Part shown: positions 2,836-63,852 of the stretch, piece by piece
Layout of the letters: the number at the start of each line of letters is the position of its first letter
Numbering within the stretch: position 1 is the stretch's first letter
From: Ulota crispa
Taxonomy: Eukaryota > Streptophyta > Bryopsida > Orthotrichales > Orthotrichaceae
Assembly (NCBI GenBank): GCA_963920765.1
Contig: OY987248.1
Coordinates: forward strand, 19,626,539 to 19,690,538
Reading direction: 5' to 3'
Length of the DNA: 64,000 bases
Notes under the pieces: model-generated
The model's input: the letters and a program-made list of their open reading frames with translations, nothing else
What the model was told of the DNA's origin: nothing
Databases searched by the model: none
Made by a program: the position numbers and the translations under genes

Positions 2836-3085
2836 TTAACCCCTAAAGGATATGACCTTCCAAAAGTGTTGGTTGCATTGATACAAGGACCATTCACTAG
2901 TACTTGAAAAAATGACTTCATGACAAATGCCAAAAAATCCCAAAAAATCCTAAGTGAATGGTAGTATGTTTGTGGCTTGGTTTAAAATTTACAGCTCTAA
3001 TGGGATTCATGTGTTACCCCCAAGTACCCCCATCCGTATACAACACTAGAGAGCAAATACAATACAACAAAATCCTTTAGGGTAC
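2836..3085. mobile_element. TTAA element, group G, copy 1
   Basis: Starts TTAACCCCTAAAGGATATGA and ends near 3085 in ATCCTTTAGGGT followed by a damaged TTAA. About 250 bp. The body matches 38035-38319, including AAAAGTGTTG near the left end and CCCATCCGTATACAACAC near the right. It is a short non-autonomous member of the TTAA-flanked group discussed in the findings. Confidence 0.75.
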
Positions 3086-3446
3086 ATGTCCAAATTTTCA
3101 AAAGAAGTACTCCAAGAAATTAGCAATGTAGGAAGCCCATATTGTCTTTGTATTACATGTCAGAGAACAACTGCGAGGTCAAATAAAAATAGGATATAAA
3201 ATTCATGAATTTCAGTGTTGCACGCATAGCTTGTGAACTTGATGTGCGGACCATTTTTCATTTCATTTGTATCAATTTTTGTGTAAAATATAAAAATACC
3301 ATCATGCTTGCATTTCAACATAATTTATAACTATCATCCAGTATAAACCATAGTAGAAAATGTAACTTCCTCCTTTTTAAAACTGATGTTTAAAATAACA
3401 TGCTATTACATATAAAGACATGACTTGGATTCTCATATTTTCAAAT

Positions 3447-3868
3447 TTAATCCTTAAAGGACCAAGCAGCCCTTTGCAGCCAGTACAATATAGAGTATTT
3501 TTCTTGTATTTGGAGTGCATCCACACCTTCATTACATTTGAGATCAACAAAGAAGTTAGAATATAGATCAATCACTAGTAGAAAATTGTGTTAAAACCCA
3601 CGTTTTCATATCATGTAATTTTTGTTGAGTTCTTTGTTTCCAACGCATAGTTCCTTGTTTGTAATGCAAAATTTGCATTGGAAACAAGGAACTCAACAAA
3701 AACTACATGATATGAGAACGTGGGTTCCAACGCAATTTTCTACTAGTGAATATTGTTCTAGTGAGGAAGTCAAGATCTCAAATTTTAAAAAAATTGTTGG
3801 TAGCAAATGCCAATTATACAACAGCATACATAGTATGTATTATAATATCTCGGCCCTTTGAGGGTTAA
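3447..3868 (+). mobile_element. TTAA element, group B, copy 1 (interrupted)
   Basis: Begins TTAATCCTTAAAGGACCAAG and ends CCCTTTGAGGGTTAA. Without the CACTA foldback lodged in it at 3573-3748 and its 3-bp duplication, it is 243 bp, the same as the copy at 4179-4421. The copy at 21814-22053 shows the uninterrupted arrangement. Confidence 0.85.
3573..3748. mobile_element. CACTA foldback MITE nested in group B element
   Basis: A 176-bp near-perfect palindrome starting CACTAGTAGAAAATTG and ending CAATTTTCTACTAGTG. It is flanked by AAT on both sides (3570-3572 and 3749-3751). CACTA ends and a 3-bp duplication are the hallmarks of the CACTA/EnSpm superfamily. Removing the element plus one AAT restores the host repeat seen at 21814-22053. 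Confidence 0.92.
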
Positions 3869-4178
3869 GCACTCACTACCTTATTTTGGTGTCTTTTTAT
3901 AATCTTTTGTACGTGTATTGGACAATGGTTAAACACAGTATATAGCTAGGCAACATGTTTGCTATTATCAAAGCATTTTTCATTGCAAGAAGGCTTCTAT
4001 AGTGCCATGACCTAGGAACAACATAATTCTAACCACATCAGTTCAAATTACTTTTTGTTTTTCTATAGGAGCAATTTCTAGAACATGTTAAATTTTATTA
4101 CCATTATCATATACACAAGTATGTATAGGTGTTTTCATTTTTGTGGTTTTCTTGTACTCAGATGCGCTAACACATTAT

Positions 4179-4421
4179 TTAACCCTTAAACAATCAAGCA
4201 ACCAAAAGACATAGTATGCAAGCTACTATATAATTGGCATTTGCTATCAACAAAAAATTTTAATTTTGGGATTTCGTTTACCCCACTAGAACAACATTGA
4301 TCTATATTCTAACTTCTTTGTTGATCTCAAATGTAGTAAAAGTGTGGATGCATTCCAAATACAAGAAAAATACATTCTATTGTACTGCTTACTACGGGCT
4401 GCTCAAACGTTTAAGGATTAA
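4179..4421 (-). mobile_element. TTAA element, group B, copy 2
   Basis: A 243-bp copy in reverse orientation, starting TTAACCCTTAAACAATCAAG and ending CGTTTAAGGATTAA. Its body is the reverse complement of the copy at 3447-3868, including the TTTGAGATCAACAAAGAAGT block. No coding potential. Confidence 0.85.
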
Positions 4422-5325: not shown

Positions 5326-5329
5326 TTGT

Positions 5330-9936: not shown

Positions 9937-10868
9937 CTAACCCCTACATGACTGTTGTCCCTTTGGGAGACAAATGGGATTTTGGGCAGGTACCTACGGC
10001 CTCAATTTTTGTCCTAATTTTTTGAAACTTTTTTTGAAGATAAAAAAACACATTAGCTTTTGGGGAATATCATTTTTATTCCAATTGATGCCAGGGAGCA
10101 AAAGTTATGCCCAAATAAGCACAAATTTGGAGACTAGGGGCAGCAAAAAAAATTCTTATAAAAACTTGAAAAAAAAATTTAGTTTTTTTTTCTTATAGAT
10201 TATAACTTTTTCAACATCTGAAGCTTTGATTCATTCCATTTGGACTAGTTATGAGAAAGTTATGGACAATCTTGTTTTTTGGGCAACTCAAGCATCTTCT
10301 TGAAAAAAAAACTTATAAACTTCATTTTTGAATGCAATTTTAAAATTTTTTCAAAAAAAATTGTTGGAGAGGGTGAAGTTTGCTTTCTAGAACAATCTCA
10401 CCATTGGGATTATTGCATTTCAATTCCATTGCAAGGTTATTAGCAATTTAAGTTTTTGTTCAATCTCATACCTTCTTCTACCTAATGATTTTTTAAAGAA
10501 TGAAAATTAAGTTTTATTTATTTATTTAATTTTTCTCAAGATTCCCAACTCAACTTCCCACCATGCAAAAGTAGAATTCCAAACTCTGTGGTGCAAAAAT
10601 TTTAAGTTTAAAATGTTCAAAGTTAAAAAATCTAGTCAAGCAAGGTGCAAAAAAAGCTATTTTTTACATTTTAAATGCATATATCTTCCAATCTGTGCGG
10701 TCAAAGTTCTTGAGTTTTGTATGACACATTCTTATAGTAGTCTAGCACAAGATCCTATGGTCAGATATGCAAAATGCTTGATTTTCAAACTTTTTTACTC
10801 TTTGCCATAGAGGTGGCAGTTTTGAGTGTCTTTTGACAAAATAAAGGCCATGGTCCTTTAGGGGTTAA
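9937..10868 (+). mobile_element. TTAA element, group A, copy 1 (932 bp)
   Basis: Begins CTAACCCCTACATGACTGTT (first T of TTAA changed) and ends CCATGGTCCTTTAGGGGTTAA-like sequence. It has the same length as, and is very similar along its whole length to, the copy at 33674-34605. Near the left end a short stem (TGTCCC...GGGAGACA) precedes AAATGGGATTTTGGGCA, shared with group D. A short open frame starting at ATGGGATTTTGGGCA is present in both copies but overlaps terminal structure and matches no transposase, so the element is treated as non-coding. Confidence 0.9.
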
Positions 10869-11827: not shown

Positions 11828-12765
11828 TTAACCCCTAAACGACCATTGTCCCTACGGGGTCAAATGGGATTTTGGGCATGTATCTATGGCTAAATTATTT
11901 TGCGTGATTTTTTGAAACTTTTATTGAAAATGGAGAATTCAAATATCTACATGAACATTGAATTTTTCCTTTATTCTAACAATTATTGAAGAAGTTATTC
12001 ATGAATTTCTAAAAACTTTCGAGATTGGGCAACCAAAAACTTTTTTTTAAATAACTTTTTTTCAAAATAAAAATCTGAAATTGGTTCCTTAGATTTATAT
12101 ATATGTGGGGAGCTTTGAATCATTCAATTTTGATTTACAAGTGAAAAGTTTTAGTTTGCGGGCAGGTATGGAACTCCCATACCTCCATTCCTTTTGCCTT
12201 TGGTACTTTACATTTTTGTTCTCTTTGTGAAATTTTTTTTTGACTTCTTCTTTTTCCAAGTTGTAGTGGACTAGGAGTCCTTGGTTTTGACCGTTTGAAT
12301 CAATGTAATTCATATTTCTCAATTTTACATAAATCCTCCAATTTTTGCTTAGTGTATATGCAAATTTCATGGCCTTACGGCATTGCAGGATTTTACAAAG
12401 TATGATTCACACCTCCAAAGCATTTGAAATTCTCCCACACATACGTAACTTGGTCTTGTACATGAGAAAAATAAACCTCAAGTTTGTGTAGAGCAAATTT
12501 TTTTTTTATCAATGGTCAAAGGCTTATGAAAATTTTGGGTAGTAAGGAAAAAAAAAAAAAATTCCACTTTGGATGTCAATAACTTTCTTCTCTACTTCCA
12601 AAATGACCTCATTTTTTCCCACAAGTACCTCTAGTAGTCTAGTGCAAGATCCTATGGTTGGATTTTCAAGAAAATAAATTGTTTATACCTCTCTACTCAT
12701 TCCCCCAAAAGTGACAATTTTTAGTGATTTTCACTAAAAAAAGGGCTTGATCCTTTGCGGGTTAA
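11828..12765 (+). mobile_element. TTAA element, group D, copy 1 (938 bp)
   Basis: Begins TTAACCCCTAAACGACCATT and ends TTGATCCTTTGCGGGTTAA. The left ~350 bp supplied, in sequence terms, the arms of the two long hairpin elements at 26297-26960 and 59982-60707. The right half matches 23780-24632 (reversed) and 52452-53400. No coding capacity was recognised. Confidence 0.88.
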
Positions 12766-14287: not shown

Positions 14288-14311
14288 TACTACTGGAAAT
14301 GGTGTTCCTAA

Positions 14312-15273: not shown

Positions 15274-16960
15274 AGCCCGTTTCCATGGGCTCACTGGAGC
15301 TCCAGTTTCCAGAGGGTATTGGACCCTGTCGGGAAGCTGCCTGGGGGCCTGGACCCTCCAGAGCTTTCCATGGGGAGATGGAAGGCCCAGCGTTTCATCA
15401 AAAAAGTTCCAAAGTTAATGTATTTCTTCAATCCAAAATTACCTGAGAATTACATAAAGCCTACTCATTGTATTATTTCCCAAATTGAGGCAGGAAAAAT
15501 GCTCGCTACAAAATTAATGAGAAAACTCAAACCCCTTCGGTCCCGAGGTTGTTGCAGAAGGAAAAATGCAACAATGTCACTTTTTGATATTTTATTCAAA
15601 ATTCAAAATAAAAATTCTGCTAAGAGTATTAACCATATAACACTGTAATACAGAACATACAACATTGTAATACAGAAGTAAAACAATGTGTAGAATTTTT
15701 CTTTTTGCCCATTTGACCACACAGATTAACCCTTTATAGACCACCAAACCATATTTTGGTTTACAAGAGTGGTATTTTGCCTATAGAGTAAGATTGCTCA
15801 ACAATTTGGAAATTGGTCTTGAAGAACGCTTGTGACCAAAAGAATTTTGCATCTAACCAAAAAAAACAATGGAATCGGGTATGTGAGTAGAAAAATAATG
15901 GTCTTCACACAACATGGCCTTAAACTACGTATATGTATTTGGTCAAAGAAGGAGCAAAGCAACAACATAATACATCAAACATCCAAGAAGAATGCCAAAT
16001 TTCAATTCTGCGGTCCAAAAAAGTTTCAAGTTGCTCAAGAAATACGCTTCTATTGTTTCTCTGTACAATAGTAGTATAATTGTAGTATTTGAAGATCTAT
16101 TCAAATGGTGGTATCAATTTATCTTCAAAAAAATTCATCCTACATTTAAGGTCAATTCTTGATTGTTTTCACCAATTGGATTTTCCATAGCATTTATCAA
16201 ATTTTTAGTAAAATTAATTTTGGGTAGTAAATAAAAAGGGGATTTAAACCCTTTTTGTTCACTTAACTACACCTTGTGATTGCTATTTTTATCCATTTTG
16301 TGTGAAACTAGTCTTATTGGAAAGGTGAGAAAGTCTCCTTTCTAGAAATATAAGGCTCTTTCTCAAGCAAAGCTTGTACAAAGCTATACGATCCAAAAGC
16401 ACATAAGCATGAAAAACTAGAGATTTTCCACCTACAATTCACTCAATCATTATAATATATCACCTCTAATGGTGGATCTTGTTGAAATCCTAATACTTTA
16501 CAATAAACAAGGTGTTCTTCCCATTTGTACAATTGGATTATTAAAATTGGATCCATATTTGAATCAATTACACATCCAAGTTTACTACCATGGTTCCTAG
16601 TAGATTTTGTGAAAATGTGTGTGGTCTTTAAAGGGTTAACCACCTAAAGTTCAAATTAAACTAATAACAAATAAAAATAATAAAAAAGAGCTCACATTGA
16701 GGAGTTGTAGACTTTTATCTTGGGTATAATGTAAATTAAATGTAACTAACATTGGTATGGTTTGTTAACCTACATGAATAAAATCCTAAAATTTCTGAAA
16801 AAGTAGGGGTCCAAGATAGGGTCCAGGCCCTCCAGCCTTGCAAAGCCACAAAAATAGGACCGAAGCCTAGACCCCAATCCTGGACCTCCAGCAAAGAGTA
16901 TGGTGCCATGGAAAAACATGGAGGGGTCCGGGATGCTGTCCAGTAGAGCCCATGGAAACT
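15274..16960. mobile_element. Probable Mutator-like element, itself interrupted
   Basis: Ends contain GTTTCCATGGGCTC and its reverse complement GAGCCCATGGAAAC. The exact 9-bp repeat AGCCCTTAG flanks the element (15265-15273 and 16961-16969), the length expected for Mutator-like elements; an 8-bp reading would suggest hAT. The arms are GC-rich (CCTGGACC/GGTCCAGG patches) and surround a 914-bp TTAA element at 15726-16639. No transposase was found. Confidence 0.7.
15726..16639. mobile_element. TTAA element, group F
   Basis: Begins TTAACCCTTTATAGACCACC and ends GTGGTCTTTAAAGGGTTAA, so the inverted ends run ~19 bp with few mismatches. At 914 bp it is close to the 900-940 bp of groups A, D, H and J but differs in internal sequence. 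It contains two short open frames (79 codons plus, 66 codons minus); neither shows recognisable transposase residues. Confidence 0.85.
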
Positions 16961-19053: not shown

Positions 19054-19944
19054 TTAATCCCTAAAGGATCCGACAACAATTTTTTGCAGCATAGCAATAT
19101 TGAGTAGGCTAGTACTTAGCAATAATAAATATATTTTCACACAAAATTTAGGACATGTGTGCCTAAGGAGTAGTTTTCCAATATAACACTTTTCAAACCA
19201 TTTTGATTTTTTTTATGATAATGATAAAATATATACTTTTGTTTGCTTATTGAGCAGCACAGGTACATTTATTTACATTGCATCTAAAATCTTTGGATCT
19301 TGCTCAAAGGTTGAGGGATAAAGCTACTTGCTTATCAAACCTTGACCCAATTTCATTCCTTAAAGCAATTGTTTTTGCTTATTGCCCTTTACTTCAACTC
19401 AAGTGGAAGTGACCATGTGTTGATCAAGCTTGTCAAAGCTAAAAATTTTGCCCAATTGCCTTTTTATTTTTCCTTATCTCTAAATCTAAATAAATCTAAA
19501 CCTCCACTACTCACATTTTGAAAATATTTTTGTATGTGGAAGCTAAAAGTTGTTGAAAAAACAACTTTGTATGAGAATTTTCTTGAAGCTAATTTCTATA
19601 CTTAATTTTAAACAAGTTCTCCAATTGAAATGTTATGAAAAAAAGTAGGCACATGGCTAGTTCTATTAAAAATTTCAACCCAGAAAATCACAAGAAAAAA
19701 ACAAAATTGGCTAGTGCAAAAGTCTTCTCAAATTATAGCTGCCCAAATTTTGAATGCCCCCCCCCAAATCTCATTTCAAACCCTATAATCTCACAAACCA
19801 AATATCTTTCATAAAAAATCTACTACTGGATCCTAAGATAAAATGCACCAAATGTCATTTCTTATTTCTTTTTTTGCATTTGCTACCAAAAACGAGTCAA
19901 TCTAAATGTTTTTTGCCAGTAGTAAAAAAAACTATAGGGGTTAA
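19054..19944 (-). mobile_element. TTAA element, group H, copy 1
   Basis: Begins TTAATCCCTAAAGGATCCGA and ends AAAACTATAGGGGTTAA; 891 bp. It is the reverse-orientation relative of 30452-31362; shared blocks include GTAATAAATATATT-type sequence near one end and a run of C followed by AAAT near the other. No coding potential recognised. Confidence 0.8.
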
Positions 19945-21813: not shown

Positions 21814-22053
21814 TTAACCCTTAAAGGATCAAGGAGCCCTTTGTGGCCAATACAATATTTGGTATTTTCTTGTATTTGGAATGCATCCACACCTTTATTA
21901 CATTTGAGATCAACAAAGAAGTTAGAACATAAATCATTGCAGTTCTAGTGAGCTAGTCAAGATCCCAAATTAAATTTTTTTATTGGTAGCAAATGCCAAT
22001 TATACAACAGCATATATACTATGTAATACGTAAAGCGGTCCTTTAAGGGTTAA
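21814..22053 (+). mobile_element. TTAA element, group B, copy 3 (uninterrupted)
   Basis: A 240-bp copy beginning TTAACCCTTAAAGGATCAAG and ending CGGTCCTTTAAGGGTTAA. It serves as the reference that shows where the CACTA foldback and the Helitron entered the copies at 3447 and 53783. Confidence 0.9.
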
Positions 22054-22740: not shown

Positions 22741-23672
22741 TTAACCCCTAAAGCAATAAGCTCAATTTTTCACAATACCGCTCCAAAACTGCCATGTCTA
22801 GTACAAGTAGCAAATTTTAGAACAAAAAACTTTTTTTGACAAATGTAGCCATAAGATCTTGTATTGCACTAGTATCAAAAGACGTGGAAAAAAAATCCAT
22901 GAGTTTTCACCATGTAGATTGTTAGATATTTGAGTTTGAATTGACAAAAAGTCATTTTTGTCTCTGCAAAAATTTAGGCAGCTGCACTTCACGAGGTCAT
23001 ATTTGTATGAAAAACTTCCAAAATGATTGTAATTTTTTGGATTTGTTCTCCAAAGCAAGTTGGGTACACACTTAAAAAATTTCAAATCATTTGGAATTGT
23101 AAAACAAATGGAAAAAAAAATAGTAAGTAAAAAAAAGTAGAGAATGATTCCAACCACTAGTTTGTTAAGAACTTAATTATGGAAAAGAAAAATTCCAATC
23201 CCAATGGTTGTAATGTTGTAATAAATAGTCTACATCTTTTGGATTTGGTCTTTTTCTAAAATATTGAAAATTGAGTAAAATAAAGGACTTCAAAGTTTAT
23301 TTTAGAGTAGAGAATCCACAACTGCCTGCAAACTGAATCTCCTCATAACTTTCATCTCATTTATAAAAATGGAAAATTTCAAAGCTTCACAAGTATATAA
23401 AAATCTAAAGAACCAATTTCAAAAAACAAGATTCAAAAAATGTTATTTTCAAAAAAGTTTTTGGCTGCCCGCCAAGCAAAGAAATCTACATCTCATGCAA
23501 TAACTTTTGAACCATGAAGTCAAAAGTTATAGAAATTGTTGGGCCTTAAAGCTACTCTTTAGACACATCATGTGTGAAAATTTCAAAGAAAAGAAATGAA
23601 AACCCCATTGGTGATGAGCTGCCCAAAATTGCTATGTTGCCAAAAAAGGGTGCTTGGTGCTTTAGGGGTTAA
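22741..23672 (-). mobile_element. TTAA element, group J (932 bp)
   Basis: Begins TTAACCCCTAAAGCAATAAG and ends TTGGTGCTTTAGGGGTTAA. It is a distant relative of group D: the stretch around 23345-23470 (CTCATAACTTTCATCTCAT, then CTTCACAAGTATATAAAAAT) corresponds to the reverse complement of the left half of group D. No coding region recognised. Confidence 0.85.
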
Positions 23673-23779: not shown

Positions 23780-24632
23780 TTAACCCCTAAAGGACCAAGC
23801 CCTTTTTTTTGCCACTTTTGGGGGAATGAGTAGAAAAGTAGGATTTTTTTTTGAAAATCCAACTATAGGATCTTGCCCTAGACTATGGGAGGTACTTTTG
23901 GGAAAAAAAGAAACTCATTCTAGATGTAGAGGAGTGAGATATTGACAACTGAAGTGACAAAAAAAATTCCCTTGCTACCCAAAAATTTCAGAAGCCTTTG
24001 ACTACTATTATAGCAAAAAAATTGCTTTATGCAAAGTTGAGATTTAATTGCTCCATGTAGTCTGTTAGGTATATGTTGGAGAGTTTTCAGATTTATTGAA
24101 AGTGTACAACATACTTTAAAAAATCTTTGAGTACCAAAAGGTCATGAAATTTGCAAATACACTAGGCAAAATTGGATGTTTTATGTGAAATCCAATAATT
24201 CAAATCACATGTTCTTAGCTCACTATAACTTGGGAAAAAAAATAATCAAAAAAAAAATTCTCAAACCGCTTAAAAAAGCAAAGCACCAAATTTTACAAGG
24301 GGCAAAAGGAATGGAGGTACATGAGTCCCCCAAGATGGGCACCTTCCACTCCACTCCCCTTTGCCCAAGTGTCCACACCTTGTGCCCCTTTGGAGTCAAC
24401 ACCCACTTACAAAGAAAATGCCATACCTAAGCTACGCCTTCTTGCCTAGTTTCAAAAAAATCTTGATAACTTCTTCATCAAATGTTGGAATGAAGAAAAA
24501 TTTAGATGCCCTCATAGGTCTTGGAATTCCTACCTTCAATAAAAGTTTCAAAAAATTACACAAAGTAAGCTATAGGTACATGCCCAAAATCTATTTGTCC
24601 ACCCAAGCAATAGTTGGGACTTTAGGGATTAA
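23780..24632 (-). mobile_element. TTAA element, group D, copy 2
   Basis: Begins TTAACCCCTAAAGGACCAAG and ends GGGACTTTAGGGATTAA; 853 bp in reverse orientation relative to 11828-12765. It shares AACTTCTTCATCAAATGTTGGAATG-type sequence at the right and the ATCTTGC...TAGACTATGGGAGGTAC region at the left. Confidence 0.85.
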
Positions 24633-24964: not shown

Positions 24965-25401
24965 TTAATCCTTAAACATCAATGAGAGCATTATTTGTCC
25001 AACATATGACAAAACCACACTATATTGGATGAGAAAACAAAATTTCATCCATTTTTAATATTAAAAGTGATCATGGAGACATGGTCTATCATGGAAGGCA
25101 AAAAAATAACCATAATGAATGCACTCAAATTTTTAGGTAACCTAAATTGTGAGAAGATTCACAATTATGGTGTTAGGTCCTATATTGTCCTTCTTTCAAT
25201 TTTCACAAAGACAACATGTAATATTGACTTATGCAACTTTTGAAACTAAACAAAAAATGTGTGGACACTTGCCACACACTTGTAACAGCAACCACAGTGA
25301 CAAGCCTAGTATTTGAGGGTTAGGTGCCCTTAGCACCCCAACTATAAAAAAAAACACTAAAATGGGGCGCAACTCACGCCCCTGGGGCGTTGAGGGGTTA
25401 A
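24965..25401. mobile_element. TTAA element, group C
   Basis: Begins TTAATCCTTAAACATCAATG and ends GGGGCGTTGAGGGGTTAA; 437 bp. Its final TTAA is the first TTAA of the next element, giving the palindrome GGGGTTAACCCC. The end-to-end match is weaker than in other groups, so this call is less certain. Confidence 0.6.
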
Positions 25402-26300
25402 CCCCTAAAGGACCATGGCCTTCATTTTGTCAAAGGACACTCAAAATTGCCACTTCTATGGCAAAGAGTAAAAAAGTTTGAAAATTGGTATTTTTGCATA
25501 TCTGATGGTTGGATCTTGTACTAGACTAGTATGAAAATGTGTCATACAAAACTCAAGAACTTTGACCGCACAGATTGGAAGATACTTGCATTCAAAGTTT
25601 AAAAAACAAGGTTTTTTGCACCTTGCATGATTATATTTTTAACTATGAACTTTTTTTACTTAAATTTTTTGCACCATAGAGTTTGGAACTTTATTTTTTT
25701 GTGGTGGGAAGTTGAGTTGGGAATCTTGGGAAAAAAATTAAAACAAAAAATACTTGATTTTCATACTTAAAAAAACATTAGGTAGAAGAAGGTATAAAAT
25801 TGAATAAAAACTTAAATTGTTAATAACCATGCAATGGAATTGAAACGCAATAACCCAATGGTGAGATTGTTCTAGAAAGCAAACTTTACCCTTTTCAACA
25901 ATTTTTTTTGAAAAAATGTTAAACTTGCATTCAAAAATGAAGTTTATAAGTTATTTTTCAAGAAGGTGCTTGAAGTTCCCAAAAAACAAGATTGTCCATA
26001 ACTTTCTCATAAGTAGTGCAAATGGAATGAGTCAAAGCTTCAAATGTAGAAAAAGATATAATCTATGATAAAAAAAAATTGAAAAAATTTTCAAATTTTT
26101 GTAAAATAACATTTTGCTGCCAAGACTCCCCAAATTTGTGCTTATTTGGGCATAACTTTTTCTCCCTAGCATTAAGTGGAATAAAAATTAGATTCCCCAA
26201 AAGCTAATGTGTTTTCCTATCTTCAAAAAAAGTTTCAAAATATCAAAACAAAAAATTGCCCAAAATCCCATTTGTCCTTTGTAGGGACAATGGTCCTTAA
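25398..26300 (-). mobile_element. TTAA element, group A, copy 3
   Basis: Begins TTAACCCCTAAAGGACCATG; 903 bp, the reverse of the copies at 9937 and 33674. The right end reads GACAATGGTCC then TTAA, lacking the TTTAGGGG present in intact ends. It shares TTAA with neighbours on both sides. Confidence 0.88.
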
Positions 26301-26960
26301 CCCCTAAATGACCACTTGTCCCTATGAGGGACAAATGGGATTTTGGGCATGTACTTACGGCTAAACTACTTTGTGTAATTTTTTTAAACTTTTATGGAAG
26401 ATGGGGAATTCAAAGATCTGTGTGGGCGTCTAACTTTTTCCTCATTCCGACATTTATTGAAGAAGTTAAAAATGAACTTATGAGAATTTTAGATCGGTGG
26501 GCAGCCCAAAAACTTCATTAAAATTTGCATTGTTTTAAAATAAAAGTTTGAGATTAGTTCTTTAGACTTACGTAAATGTGGGAAGCTTTGAATTATTCAA
26601 TTCTAATTGATAAGATAAAAGTTATGAGAAGTTTTAGTTTCTCATAACTTTCATCTCATCAATTATAATTGAATGATTAAAAGCTTCCCACATATACGTA
26701 AGTCTAAAGAACTAACCTCAAACTTTTATTTTTTTTTAAATGAAAATTTTAAAGAAGTTTTTGGGCTGCTCGCCAAACTAAAATTCTCATAGATTCATCT
26801 TTAACTTTTTCAATAAATGTCGAGTTAGGTGCTCACACAGATATTTGAATTCCCCATCTTCTATAAAAGTTTCAAAAAATTACACAAAGTAGTCTAGCCA
26901 TAAGTACATGCCCAAAATCCCTTTTGTTCCCCGTAGGGACAAGTGGTCCTTTAGGGTTAA
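26297..26960. mobile_element. Long hairpin TTAA element, group D-derived, copy 1
   Basis: Begins TTAACCCCTAAATGACCACT and ends AAGTGGTCCTTTAGGGTTAA. The whole 664 bp is one inverted repeat with arms of ~325 bp and a loop of only a few bases near 26628. Each arm equals the left ~325 bp of group D (compare 11828-12150). A transcript across it would fold into a very long double strand. Confidence 0.92.
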
Positions 26961-30451: not shown

Positions 30452-31362
30452 TTAACCCCTAAAGTTTTTTTTAGATAATGTTTCACCAAAAACACATTCA
30501 GAATGAGTCTTTTTATAGTAAAGGCAAGAAACAATTAAAAATGAAATCTTGGTGCAATTTATTGTAGGATCAAGTAGTAAAATTATTTCATTATATAATC
30601 TTAAATAGATAAAAGATATATAGATTGTGAGATTATAAGGTTTGAAGTAAGATAAATGTTCTTTTGGGGGGGCATTCAAATTTTGGGTAGCTCTAATTTA
30701 AGGAGGTTTTCGCACCAATGAATTTTACTAGTTTTTATTGTACTTTTCTAAATTTCCTTTTAGAACTAATTGTATTCATTAAAAAAATTGTCATAGCAAT
30801 TTGAATTGGGGAACGCATACTAAAAACTAGAATGGCAAACTAGCTTCAAGAAAATTCTCATGCAAAGTTGTTTTTCCAACAATTTTTAGCTTCCACATAC
30901 AATGATCTTTTCAAAATGTGAACAATGGAGCTTTAGGTTTTAGCTCATTTTAAAGGAAGACAAAAAAAAAATGTTGCTTTGACAAGCTTGATCAACATAG
31001 GGCCACTTCTAACAAAGGTGAAATAAAGGTCAGTAAGCAAATGTTATTGCTTTCATGGAATGAGGTTGAGTCAAATGTGGCAAGGGAATATCTTAGCCCC
31101 TCAAATTTTGGGCAAGATCCCAAAATTTTAACTGTAGTGTAAATATATGTACCTGTGTTGCCCCTTGAGCAAACAAAATTACATATTCCATCATAACTTC
31201 TTTATTTACAATTGAAATAGTTTGAAAAATGTTGCATTGGAAAGTTACTCCTTGGAAACACATCCTCTAAAATTATGTGAGAATATATTTATTACTTTAT
31301 AAGAACTATCTTGCCCAAAATTATTGTGTTGCCAAAATTGCGACTTGGACCTTTGGGGTTAA
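30452..31362 (+). mobile_element. TTAA element, group H, copy 2
   Basis: Begins TTAACCCCTAAAGTTTTTTT and ends CTTGGACCTTTGGGGTTAA; 911 bp. Relative of 19054-19944 in opposite orientation. Its last TTAA is shared with the element that follows. Confidence 0.82.
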
Positions 31363-31902
31363 CCCCTAAAGGCCCAACGGGGTAAGGCCAAAATATAGAT
31401 GTGTTGTAAAATGATACTTTTGTAACTTTGATGAAGTTTGATTCAAAAGAGAAAATAAAAATCATAATTTTTAGTAATTATCCATATGGTCAAACACTCA
31501 AAAAAAGTTTTAAATTTTTATGTAACAAATTTAGAAGCATTTACCATTTAATATTCACCAAAATTACAAATTTTATTCATAGATTTCAAATTTTGGTATG
31601 ATTGGTTAAAAATAGACATTCTAACCTAAACTTTGGAAATGCAATCTTTTGAAAGGAGAGAACATCATTAGTTTCCCAAAATAGTAAGTTTTACAACACT
31701 AACAAATATTGAAGTGTCTTGTTTTTGAAAAATTCTCCTTGGCGGAGTCTAACTTGGATTGACATGGTTCAAGTTAAATTGAAAAGTTAACTTGATTTTC
31801 TATCACAAAAAAATATATTTTTGGAAAATAAAAATTTAGTCTTTGAAGCCCAAAAAAATGGATAGCCATTAGAAAATGGTTGATTGGACGCTTAGGGGTT
31901 AA
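31359..31902. mobile_element. TTAA element, group I
   Basis: Begins TTAACCCCTAAAGGCCCAAC and ends GATTGGACGCTTAGGGGTTAA-like sequence; 544 bp. Only copy of its internal sequence in the window. Confidence 0.78.
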
Positions 31903-38034: not shown

Positions 38035-38319
38035 TTAACCCCTACAGGATGTTGCCTACCAAAAGTGTTGTATGTATTTGTATGAGAACCATTTAGTACT
38101 TGAAAAAAGTATTTTACAACAAATATCAAAAATTTCTCAAAAAATCCTAGTTGATCAGTATTATGTTTCTGACTTGGCTTGAAATTTACAACTCTAATGG
38201 AATTCACGTGCTATCCAAATACCCCATCCGTATACAACACGGGAGTCCGTATTCAACACGGGAGTCCGTATACAACACGAGAGTCCGTATACAAAACAGT
38301 AACATCCTTTAGGGGTTAA
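38035..38319. mobile_element. TTAA element, group G, copy 2
   Basis: Begins TTAACCCCTACAGGATGTTG and ends AACATCCTTTAGGGGTTAA; 285 bp. Longer than copy 1 because an ~18-bp unit near the right end is repeated about four times (see 38226-38297). Confidence 0.88.
38226..38297 (+). repeat. Short tandem repeat inside a TTAA element
   Basis: About four copies of an 18-bp unit of the form CCGTATACAACACGGGAGT with small changes. The single-copy state is seen in the related element at 2836-3085, so the expansion happened inside the transposon. Confidence 0.85.
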
Positions 38320-49797: not shown

Positions 49798-50028
49798 TTA
49801 ACCCCTGAAGGGCCCTTGGGCTTGGAGTTACGGTATCAAATACGGTCGCAACCAATATTCAGGAGTTTGAATCAGTTGGAAATTAAGTGTTACAATCATA
49901 CATATTAAAGTGTTGTATGATGGTGGGTGCATAATTTTTTTTGAAAAATTCTCGGAGCAGCTCAAATACATCTATACATATGGTCATATATACAACTGCA
50001 AAGGGCGTTCGGACCCTTCAGGGGTTAA
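49798..50028 (+). mobile_element. TTAA element, group K, copy 1
   Basis: Begins TTAACCCCTGAAGGGCCCTT and ends CGGACCCTTCAGGGGTTAA; 231 bp with good inverted ends. Relative of 56774-56995. Confidence 0.88.
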
Positions 50029-52451: not shown

Positions 52452-53400
52452 TTAACCCCTAAAGGATCATTGTCCCTTTGGGGGACAAATGGGATTTTGG
52501 GCATGTACCTCTCCACCTAACTATTTTTTGTGATGTTTTGAAACTTTTATTGAAGATGGGGAATTCAAAGATCTGCGTGAGCATTTAACTTTTTCTTCAT
52601 TCCAACATTTATTGAAGAAGTTATGCATGAATAACTGAAAAACAAGGGAGAATCAAGCAACCAAAAAAAACTGTCTTTTTTTTAAAATAAACATTTGAAA
52701 TTGGTTCTTTAGATTTTTGTATATGTGGGAATCTTTGAGTTATTCAATTTTGATAGATGAGATGAAAGTTATGAAAAGTTGAAGTTTGCAGGTAGGTATG
52801 GGACTCCCAAACCTCCATTCCTTTTCCTCCTTGTAGAACTTGTTGCTTTACTTTTTTGAGCACTTTGTATATTTGTTTTTTGACTCTTTTTTTTGCAAGT
52901 TGTAGTAGACTAAGATTCCTTTGTTTTCACCATTTGGATCAAGGTAATTCAAATTTCTAAATTTTAAACAAATCCTCCAATTTTGCCTAGTGTATTTGCA
53001 AAATTCTAGACCTTCTGGCATTGCAGGATTTTACAAAGTATGATCCACATGTCCAGTTCGTTTGAAAATTCTCCCACACATACCTAACTTGGTTTTGGAC
53101 ATGAATAAAAAAGTCCTCAACTTTGAGTAGAGTCATTTTTTTGACATATCAGTGGTCAAAGGCTTTTGAAAATTTTGGACAAGAAAGAAATTTTTTTCTT
53201 CACTTTGGATGTAATTATCTCGCTCCTCAACATTTAAATTCAATTGATTTTTTCCCAACAAGTACCTCCCATAGTTTAGGCCAAGATCCTACAGTTAGAT
53301 TTTCCAAAAAAAAGTTTTTTTTTACTATTCTACTCACTCCCAAAAAGTGACAATTTTCACTGAAATTCACAGAAAAAAGACCGCGGTCCTTTAGGGTCAA
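52452..53400 (+). mobile_element. TTAA element, group D, copy 3
   Basis: Begins TTAACCCCTAAAGGATCATT and ends CGCGGTCCTTTAGGGTCAA, the final TTAA altered to TCAA; 949 bp. Closely follows 11828-12765 along its length, including ATGGGACTCCC and CATTGCAGGATTTTACAAAG. Confidence 0.88.
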
Positions 53401-53782
53401 TTACTTATAGTAGATAACCTCATTGCACTTTATATTTTTTACTTTAATTCTTATAATTCAAGTTCCGCATTAGTAGAAACCATTTGAACGTTAAAACAAA
53501 CATTGCAATACCTTGCAAAAAGAAAGTCGAGACTCAAGAAATGGTTTTAATAACGTATATATCTCCTTTACCCTTTCAAAGCTTTGTAGAAAGTAATTGG
53601 CTTCAATTCTCCACAACGAAACTCCCGGAATTTATTATGACTGTTTCTAGATACAATTCACCAAACACACTCCTGTAACCACAAATTTCACATTCAAATA
53701 TAAATATTTGAGTTGCAGACTAAGATATACAAGGCCCAAAACTAAAAACTTGTGTATAAACTCAAATTTCCATCATTTAAGT
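53401..53782. other. Gene-free stretch
   Basis: Nothing recognised. Confidence 0.4.
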
Positions 53783-54475
53783 TTAACTCCTAAACGTCTG
53801 AAAGGCCACACCTTTACTACACTTGAGATCAACAATCAACTTGGAATATATCTATATTATTAAGTGGGAGGATTTCCCTCAGTGCTCTCTTTTCTAGAAC
53901 TTTCTAGAACTTTTTGTTGTAAGTTGAAGCAAGAAAGGAAGTCCAAGATATAAAACACCATGCAAGTACCCTCCAATCATATCCCTTTTCAAAATTTTCT
54001 AAAACTTTTTGGTGGAAGTTGAAATAATGAGTCATGCTTCAAATTTAAAACACCAAATGCCCTCCAACGGTGTGCTAGAAATCAATCAAATGCCAAGCAC
54101 CCCTTGGCAAAATAATAAAGAGTGGGATTGTAATGAAAGCAATTAGTGTGTTTGGTCTCAAGAAAGGACCAAAATGATGATGCATCAAGGTTAGGTTCTA
54201 GACTAGTTGTGAGATATTGATTTTTTGTAAAGTACATCAAGATTATATTCTAGACCAATTGATTTGTGAGATATCAAATTCTCGTAAAGTTGAATGTTGT
54301 GTCACCCATACATATCCAACTCGTGCAAAGCCTGTGCACGTAACTTATACTAGTATAGATATATCAATGCAATTCTAATGAGCTATTTGAGATCCCAAAT
54401 TAAAGCTTCTTGTCAGTAACAAATGCCAATTATGTGACAACATATCTTCTATCCCATGGGACCTTGAGGGGTTAG
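53783..54475 (+). mobile_element. TTAA element, group B, copy 5 (interrupted)
   Basis: Begins TTAACTCCTAAACGTCTGAA and ends GACCTTGAGGGGTTAG (last TTAA decayed). It carries a 503-bp Helitron at 53851-54353; without it the element is about 190 bp and lines up with 21814-22053, with a deletion near the left end. Confidence 0.82.
53851..54353 (+). mobile_element. Non-autonomous Helitron, copy 2
   Basis: Starts TCTATATTATTAAGTGGG after A and ends TTATACTAG before T. A clear 3' hairpin, CGTGCA-AAGCCTG-TGCACG, stands ~12 bases before the CTAG end. All are Helitron hallmarks. It sits inside a group B element, and removal restores the continuous sequence of that repeat. Relative of 29349-29829. Confidence 0.93.
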
Positions 54476-56773: not shown

Positions 56774-56995
56774 TTAACCCTTGAAGGGCCCTTGGGCTCT
56801 GGAGCTACAGTACCAAATATGGTTGCAATCAATATTCAGAAGTTTGAATCAACTGAAAATTAAGTGTTACAACCATACATATTGAAGGGTTGCATGATGG
56901 TGGGTGCATAAAAAAACTAAAAAGCCTTCAAAGCAGCTCAAATATGTCGACCATACACAAGGCTGCAAAGGGTTTTCGTGACGTTCAGAGGTTAA
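56774..56995 (+). mobile_element. TTAA element, group K, copy 2
   Basis: Begins TTAACCCTTGAAGGGCCCTT and ends GTGACGTTCAGAGGTTAA; 222 bp. It is inserted into one unit of an A-rich tandem repeat, and removing it with one TTAA leaves the repeat in perfect register. Confidence 0.92.
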
Positions 56996-57891: not shown

Positions 57892-58245
57892 AGATTGATA
57901 AGGATGTCTTATAATTGCAATTTATGCTTTTCTTTCTTTTTTTTCTTTTTTTTGGTTTAATATCTAGTTTCTCGTCATTTTTGTCTTTTGTGGCGGTTTG
58001 TTGTTCTATGGAAAATAAGTTGTTGTAAATCATTGAAATAATTTTAACTTAGAATTGGAGCAATTACCAGTATAGAAAATGAGGCATCTTTGTGGTATAC
58101 TTACAAATGTCTACTAGATATTTAATCCCTAAAGCCCAAGGGGTGTTTTCACCAGAAACTATCAAAATTTGTGTTTTTTCAATATGTTGTTGTGGATTTT
58201 AGTTTGAAAATTATTTTTGAAACTTCAATCATACAAAATTATAGT

Positions 58246-58474
58246 AAAACATTTTAGTATTGAAAAAGCCCCCTTGGGGGAAAAACTAGGGTTGTCTTGA
58301 GACGTCAGTCATCGTATAATCAAATGAATACAGAATACACAAAATGAAAAAAACCCCTTAATAGGGGAAAAATCCGGAAATCCGGTGAGGGAAGAAAACC
58401 GGATGACTCAACTAGAGCTCATGTGCAAAAGGAGGTGCAAAGTGGCTCGGTGGCACAAAACATTTTAGTATTGA
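58246..58474. mobile_element. 193-bp insertion with 18-bp target duplication
   Basis: The sequence AAAACATTTTAGTATTGA occurs exactly at 58246-58263 and 58457-58474. Between them lie 193 bases bounded by AAAAGCCCCCTTGGGGG and CTCGGTGGCAC. A duplication this long points to target-primed retroposition, for example a SINE or short LINE tail. I see no convincing A and B boxes, so the class is open. Confidence 0.65.
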
Positions 58475-58697
58475 GTGCAAAAAATTTGAGCCCATTTTAC
58501 CACACAGATTGAAAGATTATAGCATTCAAAATTTGTGAAAAAGTTTTTTTGTCCCTACCTAAATAGGTCAACAGACTTTGAGCCTTTTTGGAGTCAAATT
58601 TTTGGTCAGTATGAATTAAAGTTTTTTTCCACTAATATCTAAATCTTGTTAGATACACTAATGAAAAGTTTCAAGAGCAAATTGTGAATCTAGCTTA

Positions 58698-58999
58698 AGG
58701 TAGGAGCACCCATAAACATCAAACTAAGGGTTTTGAACATGATGACGATTAATAAACAACTAGCAAATTATAGGAACAGAAAAAAATGAGTTTGCACTTT
58801 CAGATGTATTATTTGGATATTGTAAGAATAAATTATGAATTTTTAAAGAGCAAACTGTCATTGCACCCATAACCACTTTTAAGAATTCATGTTTGCATGT
58901 TGTACATTCTTGTCATTACATCTATTAACTTCCACAGATTTTCCAAGATTTCAAAAGTGACAATTATGGGGACACTGACGCTTACAAGTGCTCCTACCT
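58698..58999. mobile_element. TA-flanked AGGTAG MITE, copy 3
   Basis: Begins AGGTAGGAGCACCCATAAAC and ends CTTACAAGTGCTCCTACCT with TA on both sides; 302 bp, nested in the group L element. Interior as in 1499-1812 and 13973-14287. Confidence 0.85.
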
Positions 59000-59952
59000 T
59001 ACTCTAAATTTTTGTGCAGTATAAGGAGGTTAAGTGAACTGGCAATACATTAATCATTCTTTCATGATTTCTTGTGCACAAAGGACATCTTTTATTTGAA
59101 ATCTGAATGGTGAAAAGTTAAGGAGAAACATTTGGAATGTTTGAAAAAAAAAAATCAAGAGCTCTGGATTTATAAATTGAAAGATGATAGGCCCTAGGGT
59201 TAGAGGAAAACAATTTTTCTTGAAACTGCCCAAACATAATTAACAAAGTTTGACTCCCTTTAGAATGTGATGTGAGACCTCTATTTATTTATTTATTTGA
59301 CAGTTGTGCACCATGTCTTTTCAGTTACATGCTTGCCAAATTTCAAAAGTTGATGAGAGTATTAGCATAAGATTCTCCAAAGATGCCCAAGCTGCCCAAA
59401 TTCTTTTGGGTAGCATAACTTTTGAACTAAGCATCCAATTGGGGAAAAATTTATATTTCCACTTGGGGGATATATATCTATACACCTTGTGTAACAATTT
59501 TGAGAACATCCAATCAAAATTGACTCCATATGACCCTACCCAAGTTCTCAAGTGGTTGTTGAACGGACACTTGGGCCTTTAGGAGTTAAAGTTGCTAGAT
59601 TGTTGCTTTCTACTACCCTTATTTTTTAAGCATTTTAGGTTTTTGTACACTTCTATGTATATGAGTTCTCAAAGTACATATGTTTTGAGGCAGTTGTGTA
59701 ATATACATACAACTCATAATAATAATAATCTTGAAGGATGTACTCTGTTTTGTATGTCAACACTTTGAAACAAAAGTCATTACTTTTTCATAAATGTTAT
59801 ATTTGGAATATATGATACATGGTTTATTGAAGTACTCTTTCCACATTCTACATGTCTATAAGTAGTTTGAACTTCTAAAGCCTTTCTTTTATTACCTCTA
59901 AGGTCTTTTGTGTAGAGATATGTAATCTATTGCACCATACTAAAGAGCACAT

Positions 59953-60714
59953 TTAACCCTTAAACATCTGAGCGTGCTAGTTTAACCCCTAAAGGACCAA
60001 TTGTCCCCTCAGGGGACAAATGGGATTTTGGGCAAGTACCTATGGCTAAACTACTTTGCATGATTTTTTGAAACTTTTATGGAAGATGGGGAATTCAAAT
60101 ATCTACGTGTGCATCTAACTCTTACTTCATTCTGACATTTATTGAAGAAGTTAAAAATGAATTTTTGGGAAAAGGTCCAAATGGAGCAGCCCAAAAATTT
60201 CTCAAAATTTGTATTAAAAATAAATAAAAATATGAAATAGGTTCTTTAGACTTATTTATAGGTGAGGAGCTTTGAATCATTCAATTTTCATAGATGAAAT
60301 GAAAGTTATAAGAAGTTTTTGTTTGTAGGTAGGTATGGTTTCTCTCAAAATCACACCTACCCGCAAACAAAAACTTCTTATAACTTTCATTTCATCTATG
60401 AAAATTGAATGATTCAAAGCTCCTCACCTATAAATAAGTCTAAAGAACCTATTTCATATTTTTATTTATTTTTAATACAAATTTTGAGAAATTTTTGGGC
60501 TGCCCCATTTGGACCTTTTCCCAAAAATTCATTTTTAACTTCTTTAATAAATGTCAGAATGAAGTAAAAGTTAGATGCCCACGTAGATACTTGAATTCCC
60601 CATCTTCCATAAAAGTTTCAAAAAATCATGCAGAGTAGTTTAGCCATATGTACCTGCCCAAAATCCCATTTGTCCCCCAAAAGGGGGCTTGGTCCTTTAG
60701 GGGTTAAGGGTTAA
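59953..60714. mobile_element. TTAA element, group B remnant around a hairpin
   Basis: Left piece TTAACCCTTAAACATCTGAG (59953-59981) and right piece GGGTTAA (60708-60714) are the two ends of a group B element; nearly all of its body is missing. The hairpin element at 59982-60707 occupies the middle. Confidence 0.6.
59982..60707. mobile_element. Long hairpin TTAA element, group D-derived, copy 2
   Basis: Begins TTAACCCCTAAAGGACCAAT and ends TTGGTCCTTTAGGGGTTAA. The 726 bp form one inverted repeat with arms of ~350 bp and a loop of ~17 bases around 60344. The arms match the left part of group D and are almost perfectly complementary to each other. Confidence 0.93.
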
Positions 60715-60851
60715 GCAATAAAGAAGACAAGGTGTCTTCTATTTTCTTGTTTGACCTTTGAGCTATACATTTACTCACATCAATAATAATATATCTCAAT
60801 AGACCATTTTTGATACAAAACTGCCACAAAAACTAATTAGGTTCTTCTTGG

Positions 60852-61108
60852 CAAATGTTATTTTATGAGCAGGGATCCATGAGCCATTAGCAATGAGCTA
60901 AGATTTTGTCAAAATAATAAATTCCACCTATACTCATGTATATAGGGTCCTATAATTGTGCATTTTGAACTATCATCTCTTGAAAATCTATCTAGTTTTT
61001 AAGTTATTCCATTGGTTTTGAATTGATAATTTCTTCTTGCTCACAAAATCTTGAATCCCTTCTCATGGCGCACCATTTTACGCTCACCAAATAGCATTGT
61101 CTAATCTT
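60852..61108. mobile_element. MITE, group V, copy 2
   Basis: Matches 5096-5325: TTATGAGCAGGGATCCATGA near the left end, TATAGGGTCCTATAATTGTG in the middle, and GCTCACCAAATAGCATTGTC at the right. Left and right ends are imperfect inverted repeats. Confidence 0.6.
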
Positions 61109-62310
61109 GTAAGTGACCATCAAAATTTGAACTTTTCTCTTAATTTCTATAGTTTTTTTAATTATCAAAACTCAAAAATAAGATTCAAACTTTTTTCCAC
61201 TTTAAGAATCAACCTTTGAATTCTAATCATCACTTCAAAAAAAATCAAAATGCCTTTTCTAAACGGGAAAGAAATACATATTATGTTCCTAGAATACATA
61301 TATTGATAATGGTTTTAGTATCCTCAAGCTAAGAGCAAAATGCTTTACTTGCATATACTTAAAAATTTAACATGTAAATAAGCAATACCCGTGTAATATA
61401 AAAAAAACTTGTACGGTTTATGCACCTAAACATCCAAATTTTATTTTAGAATTTAATCATAAGATCATAATATTTATTATTTGTGATATTAAAATAACAA
61501 ATATTAGAGTAAATGCATGTTATTTGATGGTGCTGCATTGTCTAAATATAAACTTCAACTATAAATCTAATCAAGAGTTCACGAGTATTGACACATGTAG
61601 GTGAGTTTATTTGGTAGGATAAATGGCACTATTGAGTGATGTTTTTGATGTGTTTTACATGGGTTTTTCTTTTTTTAGTTGCAGAAAAGCTCAATTCTAT
61701 ACTTTTATCAGGTGAACATACATGTATTGCAAATGGAAAATTCAATAAATCATCATGGGTAAAAGATTCTAATCATCAGTTGCAATCTTCTTTGATTGAT
61801 GCATATTTCAATAAATAAAAAATAAAATGTGTAGGTCACAAAGATAGATATGATGACACATTTGGATTCAAGAGGTATATCTAAAAATTATTCATCATTT
61901 TACTCTATTTTGGAGTACATTTGATTTAGACCCATGGAATTTTAATGAATTGATCAGCAACTTCTTCAATTTATTTGAAATTTCATTTTATAAAATTTGG
62001 ATGTTGCTGCTTCGTTCCTTATTTGGTTTACCAAATAAATTTCTACTTAAGTTCAAAAGTAGTTAACATTGTAACTTGAATATTCAATTTCTATGCTTGC
62101 ATTTGTTTATTCTTCCTTAAAACTAACAAGTACCTAGCAAAAAAAATTGCGCTAAATTGATAATATGATATGTTGGACAAATTGTGCTTTTGAATTGACT
62201 ACTAGTATAGAAAAACACTTGCTTTCAACAATGAAGTGTGAATATCAAAATGATTAAGTGAGTATTGCAATTGGTAATTTGTATTATCAATGTACATATG
62301 TACCTTCAAG
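61109..62310. other. AT-rich gene-free stretch
   Basis: No gene or paired repeat recognised. A 60-codon open frame at 61636-61818 shows no family feature. Confidence 0.4.
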
Positions 62311-63852
62311 TTAACCTTTAAAGGACTGCTGCTTTTACTTTGTCAAAAGACACTTAAAACTGCCATTTTCATGGCAAAGAGTAAAAGTTTGAATTGATCT
62401 TTTTGCCTATCTAACCGTAGGATCTTGTATTAGATTATTATACAAATGTGCAAAAAAGAATTCAAAAACTCTGACCACAAATATTGTAAGATATTTGCGT
62501 TTTAAGTGTAAAAAACAAACTTTTGTGCACCTTACATGATTAGATTATTTGACTATGAAATTTTTTAACTTAAAATTTTTGCACCACAAAGCTTGGAATT
62601 TTCAATCTTTATGTTGGAAAATTGAGTTGAGAGTCTTTAGAAAATAATTAAAGTAATAAATATTTCATTTTAATTCTTAAAAAAATTAGGCAGAAGAAGG
62701 TACAAGATTGAGCAAAAACTAAAATTGTTAATAACACTGCAATAGAATTGAAACACAATAATCCCAATGGTGAGATGGTTCTAGCAAGTAAAATTCACCC
62801 TTTCTAACATTTTTTTCTGAAAAAATGTTACACTTGCATTTAAAAACAAACTTTATAAGTTATTTTTTCAGGAAAATGCTTAACCCCTAAATGCTTGCGG
62901 CACCAAATTTTGGTGTTTGCAAAATTATGAGGTTCAGTAAACCTAACTAAGCTGCTATTTTTAGTATTTTGCATTTTGGATTTATAATTTGTGAAGTCTA
63001 ATTTTAGGATTAGCAATTTGATTTTGAAAATGATCAATTATCAGTTTTTTATTCAAGCTTTTGTGCAAGGGTCTTGACTTTCTCTAGTGTTAAGAGCTCT
63101 TGGAAATGAGCCTCAAATACACTAGATCTTGGAAAAAAATTTAGACAAAAAATTCATTTGAAAAAATTGTAGAAGAGATTTTGAAAAGCTATGAAGTGAT
63201 TGGAGTTATGTATGTTATTTCCTTTAACCTTATATTTGTTTGATGGTCAATTTTTTTAGATCCAACATGTGAAAAGAGGATTCAAAGGCTTCAAGTCATT
63301 TTTGTAGTTTTAACACCCACATGATCAAACATAATAATCTTTCAATCCATTAATGATATTGTTGTGTTTTCTTTTCTTGTGTGACCTCTAACATATCTAG
63401 TTTGAATTTATACGATTACAATACAAAAAAAACTTGACACAGCTTATTAAATGTTGCCTTTTTGTTCAATTTGAAGCAAATTCCTAAAAGCCCAAAAAGG
63501 CCTCAGGCATTTAGAGGTTAAATTGCCCAAAAATAGGATTGTCTATAACTTTCTCATAACTAGTCCAAATGGAATATATCAAAGCCTCAGATGTAGACAA
63601 AAGTATAATCTATGATGGGGAAAAATCAATTTTGTGTAAAAAAATTGCTGCCTAGACTCCCCAAATTTGTGCTTATTTGGGCATAACTTTTGCTCCCGGG
63701 CATAGATTGGAATAAAAATGATATTTCCCAAAAGTTAATGTGTTTTTGTATCTTCAAAAAAAATCAAAAAAATCAGAACAAAAATTGAGGCCGTAGGTAC
63801 CTCCCCAAAATCCCATTTGTCCCCATAGGGACAACAATCCTTTAGGGGTTAA
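62311..63852 (-). mobile_element. TTAA element, group A, copy 4 (interrupted)
   Basis: Begins TTAACCTTTAAAGGACTGCT and ends CAATCCTTTAGGGGTTAA. Without the nested element at 62880-63521 (counting one TTAA) it is 904 bp, matching the 903-bp copy at 25398-26300 in the same orientation. Confidence 0.9.
62880..63521. mobile_element. TTAA element, group O, nested in group A copy 4
   Basis: Begins TTAACCCCTAAATGCTTGCG and ends CCTCAGGCATTTAGAGGTTAA-like sequence; 642 bp. The surrounding group A sequence continues uninterrupted once this element and one TTAA are taken away. Single copy in the window. Confidence 0.88.

What the first reader, a model, noticed from the sequence alone, without database searches (positions are those of the whole stretch)
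2836..63852. Swarm of piggyBac-like (TTAA) non-autonomous elements in a plant genome
About 27 elements in about a dozen sequence groups begin TTAA-CCC and end GGG-TTAA with inverted ends of ~15-20 bp (CCCCTAAAGGACC type). Together they make up roughly a quarter of the window. Seen directly: the ends, their pairing, and two restorable empty sites. Established: a TTAA target duplication with CCC/GGG termini defines piggyBac. Inference: a plant lineage in which piggyBac-type MITEs became a main genome component, which is unusual as this superfamily is not among those routinely described in seed plants.
Basis: partly seen in the sequence, partly recalled or inferred. Interest (0 to 1): 0.88.

Follow-up and report, generated by a model that had tools for sequence, protein, structure and literature searches.

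The report
Dense TTAA-flanked miniature transposons in plant DNA
About a quarter of this stretch of plant DNA consists of non-coding jumping elements whose ends and target sites resemble the piggyBac type, a type that surveys of land plants mostly leave out, although the enzyme that moved them is not in the stretch.

Summary
Twenty-six elements (188-1542 bp, about 13 groups) with the shared end CCCCTAAAGGACC, bounded by TTAA, cover 26.4% of the window, or 23.1% without doubtful ones and foreign inserts. Found by the inner motif alone, 21 of 24 ends have TTAA outside; 46 of 905 oriented TTAA sites carry the end against 0.6 expected. One nested insertion has three empty paralogous sites, though these read TTGA. 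Six-frame Pfam scans found no transposase; the host gene was found as positive control. The host is a plant (QLQ+WRC gene) of undetermined lineage; no genome is held. The ends fit piggyBac-type MITEs (TTAA, CCC at 39 of 52 ends) better than Kolobok (RR...YY), Harbinger or mariner. But the strict CC[C/T]T motif is met at 13 of 52 ends, TIRs of 12-19 bp occur in 11 of 26 elements, and no autonomous partner could be sought, so membership is unproven. "Main genome component" rests on one window. A 2022 land-plant classification and a 207-genome MITE survey leave piggyBac out; other papers do name it for plants.

The parts
2836..3087 (+). TTAA element, group E; right site decayed to ACAT
3447..3868 (+). 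TTAA element, group C, carrying a nested CACTA-like MITE at 3573-3748
4179..4421 (-). TTAA element, group C
9937..10868 (+). TTAA element, group A (left site CTAA); 93.7% identical to the copy at 33674
11828..12765 (+). TTAA element, group B
15726..16639 (.). TTAA element, single in window; TIR 18 bp
19054..19944 (+). TTAA element, group D
21814..22053 (+). TTAA element, group C; free of the CACTA-like insertion of 3447-3868
22741..23672 (.). TTAA element; interior partly shared with groups B and P
23780..24632 (-). TTAA element, group B
24965..25401 (.). possible TTAA element, not in the count of 26; strong right end, left end doubtful (7 of 13 bases)
25398..26300 (-). TTAA element, group A; TIR at the 26300 end truncated; shares a TTAA with the next element
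26297..26960 (.). TTAA element, group P, inverted-repeat (foldback) type, arms 85% alike
30452..31362 (-). TTAA element, group D; shares a TTAA with the next element
31359..31902 (.). TTAA element, single
32563..32750 (-). TTAA element, group C; weak left end (5 of 13)
33674..34605 (+). TTAA element, group A
38035..38319 (+). TTAA element, group E
49798..50028 (+). TTAA element, group F
52452..53401 (+). TTAA element, group B; right TTAA lost (CAAT)
53783..54475 (+). TTAA element, group C ends, carrying about 450 bp of another repeat (53889-54337); right site TTAG
56774..56995 (+). TTAA element, group F
58122..59589 (.). doubtful: TTAA-bounded segment (9 of 13 end bases) holding another repeat (58698-59003)
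59953..60714 (.). doubtful: outer TIR-like ends (about 40 bp in all) around the element at 59982
59982..60707 (.). TTAA element, group P, inverted repeat with arms 94% alike; folds as one hairpin
62311..63852 (-). TTAA element, group A, split by the next element
62880..63521 (.). TTAA element nested in a group A copy; three empty paralogous sites

Best explanation
These are non-autonomous cut-and-paste DNA transposons (MITEs and somewhat larger derivatives) of about 13 groups. They share a short terminal recognition sequence, CCCCTAAAGGACC, and inserted at TTAA, duplicating it. Inferred: a TTAA-specific transposase, most likely of the piggyBac superfamily, bound the shared ends in trans, cut the element out and joined it to staggered TTAA cuts; new groups arose when unrelated DNA, or an inverted copy of one half, became trapped between competent ends. 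Shown: ends, TTAA sites, one empty-site case, nesting, no Pfam-detectable coding relics, divergence between copies. Inferred: the transposase, its family, the age and the mode of group formation.
For: End profile at TTAA sites 46 against 0.6 expected; 21 of 24 motif-found ends have TTAA; flanks outside TTAA nearly uninformative; three empty paralogs for 62880-63521; copies within groups 70-94% identical, K2P 0.07-0.39; no transposase or reverse transcriptase match in six frames of 54.4 kb, where the same method finds QLQ and WRC in the gene region. 39 of 52 ends start CCC, as described for piggyBac (passages of PMC10813416; PMC2872659); Kolobok ends are RR...YY (passages of PMC9587614) and 1 of 52 ends, a truncated one, starts RR.
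Against: No autonomous copy or transposase relic in the window. Half of the ends (26 of 52) start CCCC, and the strict CC[C/T]T is met at 13 of 52; TIRs of 12-19 bp occur in 11 of 26 elements. The three empty paralogs read TTGA, not TTAA, so a base must have changed in the host copy before insertion or in the others. Only 1 of 26 flank joins gave an accepted empty site. Only 15 of 26 elements meet a rule adapted from Repbase (first 11 bases, <=1 mismatch to one consensus, better end; rule from PMC4455052), so more than one transposase is possible.
Confidence: 0.65

Rival explanations
1. The same kind of TTAA elements, but moved by a transposase of another superfamily: a Sola3-like one or an undescribed plant lineage that converged on TTAA and C-rich ends.
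For: Sola (Physcomitrella Sola1, also Capsicum) stands in a 2022 land-plant classification beside the five superfamilies that the 207-genome MITE survey uses (PMC9033089 table passage; PMC12550479); no transposase in the window to say otherwise; half of the ends are CCCC rather than CCCT. That Sola3 targets TTAA is recalled, not from a call.
Against: CCC ends with TTAA are the published piggyBac pattern; Sola2 sites are AWWT-type (passage of PMC3627910); Sola3 ends could not be checked.
Confidence: 0.23
2. Kolobok-type elements, which also duplicate TTAA.
For: TTAA sites.
Against: Kolobok ends are 5'-RR...YY-3' and the plants named for it are a chlorophyte and rhodophytes (PMC9587614 passages); 1 of 52 ends here starts RR, a truncated one.
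Confidence: 0.04
3. Ordinary plant MITEs of the Tc1/mariner (TA) or PIF/Harbinger (TTA/TAA) kind whose sites only look like TTAA.
For: TTAA contains TA, TTA and TAA; these superfamilies are among the five used for plant MITEs (PMC12550479 passages).
Against: The outermost T at -4 is present in 21 of 24 ends found without asking for it, and the ends are symmetric with a 4-bp site.
Confidence: 0.05
4. Chance or host palindromes in AT-rich DNA.
For: 453 TTAA sites in the window.
Against: 46 ends against 0.6 expected; copies align over full length up to 94% identity; empty sites.
Confidence: 0.01

Closest known systems
piggyBac/TTAA MITEs, e.g. coral CMITEs (PMC2872659, passages)
   Same: TTAA duplication, short C-rich TIR, no coding capacity, several groups, elements that abut one another
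   Different: Plant host; half of the ends CCCC rather than CC[C/T]T; no autonomous piggyBac seen here
piggyBac superfamily transposons (PMC10813416, passages)
   Same: TTAA site, CCC as first TIR bases, short TIR
   Different: No transposase found; that paper's elements are from animals
Kolobok (PMC9587614, passages)
   Same: TTAA site
   Different: Ends RR...YY in Kolobok, mostly YY...RR here
Sola (PMC9033089 table passage; PMC3627910 passage)
   Same: AT-rich 4-bp site; reported from a moss and from Capsicum
   Different: Sola2 sites are AWWT; ends of Sola3 not checked
Plant Tourist and Stowaway MITEs (PMC12550479, PMC10004981 passages)
   Same: Non-coding, TIR, TSD, multi-copy
   Different: 3-bp or 2-bp site instead of 4-bp TTAA

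Membership tests
piggyBac/TTAA MITE | TTAA 4-bp target duplication | tested here: met
   21 of 24 motif-found ends; 22 of 26 elements exact on both sides, list chosen partly by TTAA; three empty paralogs with a single 4-mer, reading TTGA, for 1 of 26 elements
piggyBac/TTAA MITE | first TIR bases CCC | tested here: met
   39 of 52 ends
piggyBac/TTAA MITE | TIR of 12-19 bp | tested here: inconclusive
   11 of 26 elements within 12-19 bp, 17 of 26 within 9-26, 8 shorter, 1 of >=60
piggyBac/TTAA MITE | strict terminal motif CC[C/T]T | tested here: inconclusive
   13 of 52 ends; 26 of 52 start CCCC
piggyBac superfamily | DDD transposase (Pfam PF13843, accession recalled) between such ends | not testable with these tools
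   none in the six-frame scans of the window; no genome held
piggyBac superfamily | C-terminal Cys-rich finger | not testable with these tools
   no transposase available
piggyBac superfamily | seamless excision | not testable with these tools
   needs orthologous empty sites or an assay
Kolobok | ends 5'-RR...YY-3' | tested here: not met
   RR at 1 of 52 ends, a truncated one
Tc1/mariner | TA site only, outer bases free | tested here: not met
   T at -4 in 21 of 24 ends
PIF/Harbinger | 3-bp TTA/TAA site | tested here: not met
   4-bp TTAA outside 21 of 24 ends, both strands pooled
Sola3 | TTAA site and its own termini and transposase | not tested
   termini not found in the passages seen; definition recalled
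MITE | no coding capacity, TIR, TSD, several copies | tested here: met
   20 of 26 elements are in multi-copy groups within the window, 6 are single
MITE | length up to 800 bp (range used by PMC12550479) | tested here: inconclusive
   14 of 26 are <=800 bp, 12 longer, some because of nested inserts

The most novel reading that the evidence does not exclude
A land-plant lineage carries a large, long-lived swarm of TTAA-specific elements driven by a transposase lineage not yet described in land plants (a plant piggyBac clade or a separate superfamily). Such elements may have been overlooked elsewhere because MITE pipelines that know only five superfamilies would file TTAA copies under TA or TTA/TAA.
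Probability: 0.35. Interest if true: 0.72.

Novelty: new member of a known kind. Interest (0 to 1): 0.5.

Why it matters
A land-plant TE classification lists six TIR superfamilies without piggyBac (PMC9033089), and a survey of 207 plant genomes put its MITEs into five superfamilies plus Micron, with mean genome shares of 0.7-2.2% (PMC12550479). A window with 23-26% TTAA elements does not fit that picture easily (one window, and elements longer than that survey's 800-bp limit are included). It suggests a lineage-specific expansion, a local cluster, or mis-filing of TTAA elements, since TTAA contains TA and TTA/TAA. It gives a concrete probe (TTAA+CCCCTAAAGGACC) for finding the autonomous partner and for asking when TTAA transposons entered land plants.

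Tried and rejected
Whole-genome search for a piggyBac transposase: no genome held. Transposase relics in six frames: none, with best chance-level matches TAN E 0.076 and RRM_4 E 0.11 outside the gene and four matches at E 0.14-0.26 in the gene region besides WRC and QLQ. Exact scan of viral contigs with the end sequence: 0 matches. Literature search for end sequences as text: 0 papers. A second TTAA empty site by joined flanks: only 62880-63521 passed; the rows for 25398, 26297 and 31359 matched their own neighbourhood and were not counted, the two rows for 56774 (69.8%, own neighbourhood; 78.6% over 42 columns) were not taken as empty sites, and a 39-column match of the 62880 join to 38383-38345 was not counted. 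Kolobok, mariner, Harbinger and chance were set aside for the reasons given under rivals. Ends 17908 (-), 49790 (+) and 63310 (+) were left out of the element list. Two papers listed for piggyBac gave nothing of use: one holds only 'piggybacking' (PMC10619864), one showed no plant piggyBac in the passages seen (PMC5791352). Host lineage: not resolved.
Full report
What was checked. The window is 64,000 bases with no N, GC 0.29-0.41 per 4 kb except 0.52-0.56 at 40-48 kb. That stretch holds a plant growth-regulating-factor gene on the minus strand: of four ORFs scanned, one has WRC (E 1.2e-21), one QLQ (E 8.6e-14) and two nothing. A tRNA-Gly(TCC) lies at 20791-20861. That WRC and QLQ together mean a land plant or a close alga is recalled knowledge. 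The lineage was not resolved and no genome is held.

The ends are real. Of 905 oriented TTAA sites, 46 carry the end profile at score >=5 where 0.6 are expected (the profile was trained on 32 of the window's own ends). Searching only for CCCCTAAAGGACC with up to two mismatches, without asking for TTAA, gives 24 hits: 21 preceded by TTAA, one CTAA, one TTAA displaced by a deletion, one lost. Around 48 exact-TTAA ends the 20 outer positions carry at most 0.23 bit, while 12 of 13 inner positions carry 0.5 bit or more. The outer T speaks against a TA site (mariner) and the symmetric four bases against a three-base site (Harbinger).

The elements are real copies. Self-comparison shows relatives bounded by these sites: group A (four copies, 81-94% identity), B (three, 70-79%), C (four measured, 73-85%, and a fifth with an insertion), D (two, 73%), E (two, 76%), F (two, 80%), P (two inverted-repeat elements, 79%). 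Pairwise K2P is 0.07-0.39; that most insertions are old is inference without a calibrated rate. Twenty-six elements by hand list cover 16,904 bp, 26.4%, or 31% outside the gene region. Leaving out two doubtful ones and two foreign inserts gives 14,775 bp, 23.1%. Four of the 26 have an altered site on one side; 24965-25401 is a possible 27th.

Insertion is shown once directly. Joining the flanks of 62880-63521 around one TTAA gives a sequence that aligns across the junction, with one or two gap positions, to three other copies of group A (83-85% identity over 197-200 columns; 10391-10195, 34129-33931, 25871-26069). The three empty copies read TTGA at the site, so the host copy had changed to TTAA first, or the others changed later. 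The other 25 joins gave no empty-site match that I accept. Two pairs of neighbouring elements share one TTAA, as expected if the TTAA at an element's end is itself a target (inference). A group C copy (3447-3868) is interrupted by a CACTA-like MITE (ends CACTAGTAGAAAA, AAT duplication) which the copy at 21814-22053 lacks.

No recognisable coding relics. Six-frame translations of 1-38400 and 48001-64000 (84 frames, X at stops) gave no Pfam match better than E 0.076, and none to a transposase or reverse transcriptase. The same method applied to 38301-48100 (18 frames) found WRC (1e-20) and QLQ (1.2e-12) and otherwise only matches at E 0.14-0.26, so it works. Very decayed relics could still escape HMMER's filters, and only Pfam was used.

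Which superfamily. Published marks, from passages only: piggyBac/TTAA MITEs have 12-19 bp TIRs with CC[C/T]T and TTAA (PMC2872659); a large number of piggyBac elements begin CCC, with TTAA sites in nearly all (PMC10813416); Kolobok also duplicates TTAA but ends RR...YY (PMC9587614). Here 39 of 52 ends start CCC, 13 fit CC[C/T]T, 26 start CCCC, 1 starts RR; TIRs fall within 12-19 bp in 11 of 26 elements. This favours piggyBac and disfavours Kolobok, but the strict motif is a minority and the transposase is missing. Sola3 is recalled as TTAA-specific; its ends were not in the passages seen. I therefore say 'works like piggyBac-type TTAA MITEs' with good confidence, and 'is piggyBac' at about two in three. 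The confidence was lowered by 0.01 after the TIR-length recount.

How it compares with plants. A 2022 classification lists Tc1-Mariner, hAT, Sola, MuDR-Foldback, PIF-Harbinger and CACTA for land plants (PMC9033089, table passage). A survey of 207 plant genomes uses five superfamilies plus Micron and its main text has no 'TTAA' or 'piggyBac' (PMC12550479). Against strong novelty: a review names PiggyBac among seven angiosperm MITE superfamilies (PMC10004981), another lists it for plants (PMC10794571), a third says piggyBac has been isolated from insects, fungi and plants (PMC10813416), and a fern repeat table has 1230 PiggyBac-labelled repeats, 0.00% (PMC6890710). Ten searches of the held library listed no paper that by its title, abstract start or the passages I opened describes such a swarm in a land plant. 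Several lists were capped (for instance 25 of 88, 25 of 28, 30 of 40 and 25 of 462 papers), no paper was read whole, and subscription papers are mostly not held.

Anatomy worth noting. The two P elements are inverted repeats (arms 85% and 94% alike); the one at 59982-60707 folds as one hairpin at -561 kcal/mol against a mean of -149 for 20 shuffles, a possible source of small RNAs (inference). Groups A, B and P share about 100 bp next to one end but differ inside, which suggests that new groups formed by capture or inverted duplication between competent ends (inference).

Noticed in passing
42293-46120 (minus strand): Growth-regulating-factor gene with QLQ and WRC domains in GC-rich exons within AT-rich surroundings; no listed TTAA element lies between 38401 and 48300, but only 19 of 453 TTAA sites lie there.
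   Followed up: partly
3573-3748: CACTA-like foldback MITE (ends CACTAGTAGAAAA, AAT duplication) nested in a TTAA element; the related copy at 21814-22053 is empty.
   Followed up: partly
1483-1812, 13973-14303, 58698-59003: Three copies of another repeat with AGGTAGCCACACCC-type inverted ends, not TTAA.
   Followed up: no
14388-14724, 27544-27821, 27910-28248: Three copies of a repeat near GAGCATCCCCAAT-type sequence, resembling Tourist-like MITEs (recalled).
   Followed up: no
28376-28873: 498-bp inverted repeat, 86% self-complementary, without TTAA at its ends.
   Followed up: no
17154-17362: 19-copy tandem array of an 11-bp unit, ATCAAATATAC.
   Followed up: no
59953-60714: Apart from the nested element, only about 40 bp remain between two matching ends (CCCTTAAAC), as if a minimal element had been hit by another in its own terminal TTAA.
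   Followed up: partly
ends of the TTAA elements: The end sequence CCCCTAAAGG contains CCCTAAA, the plant telomere unit (recalled); probably coincidence.
   Followed up: no
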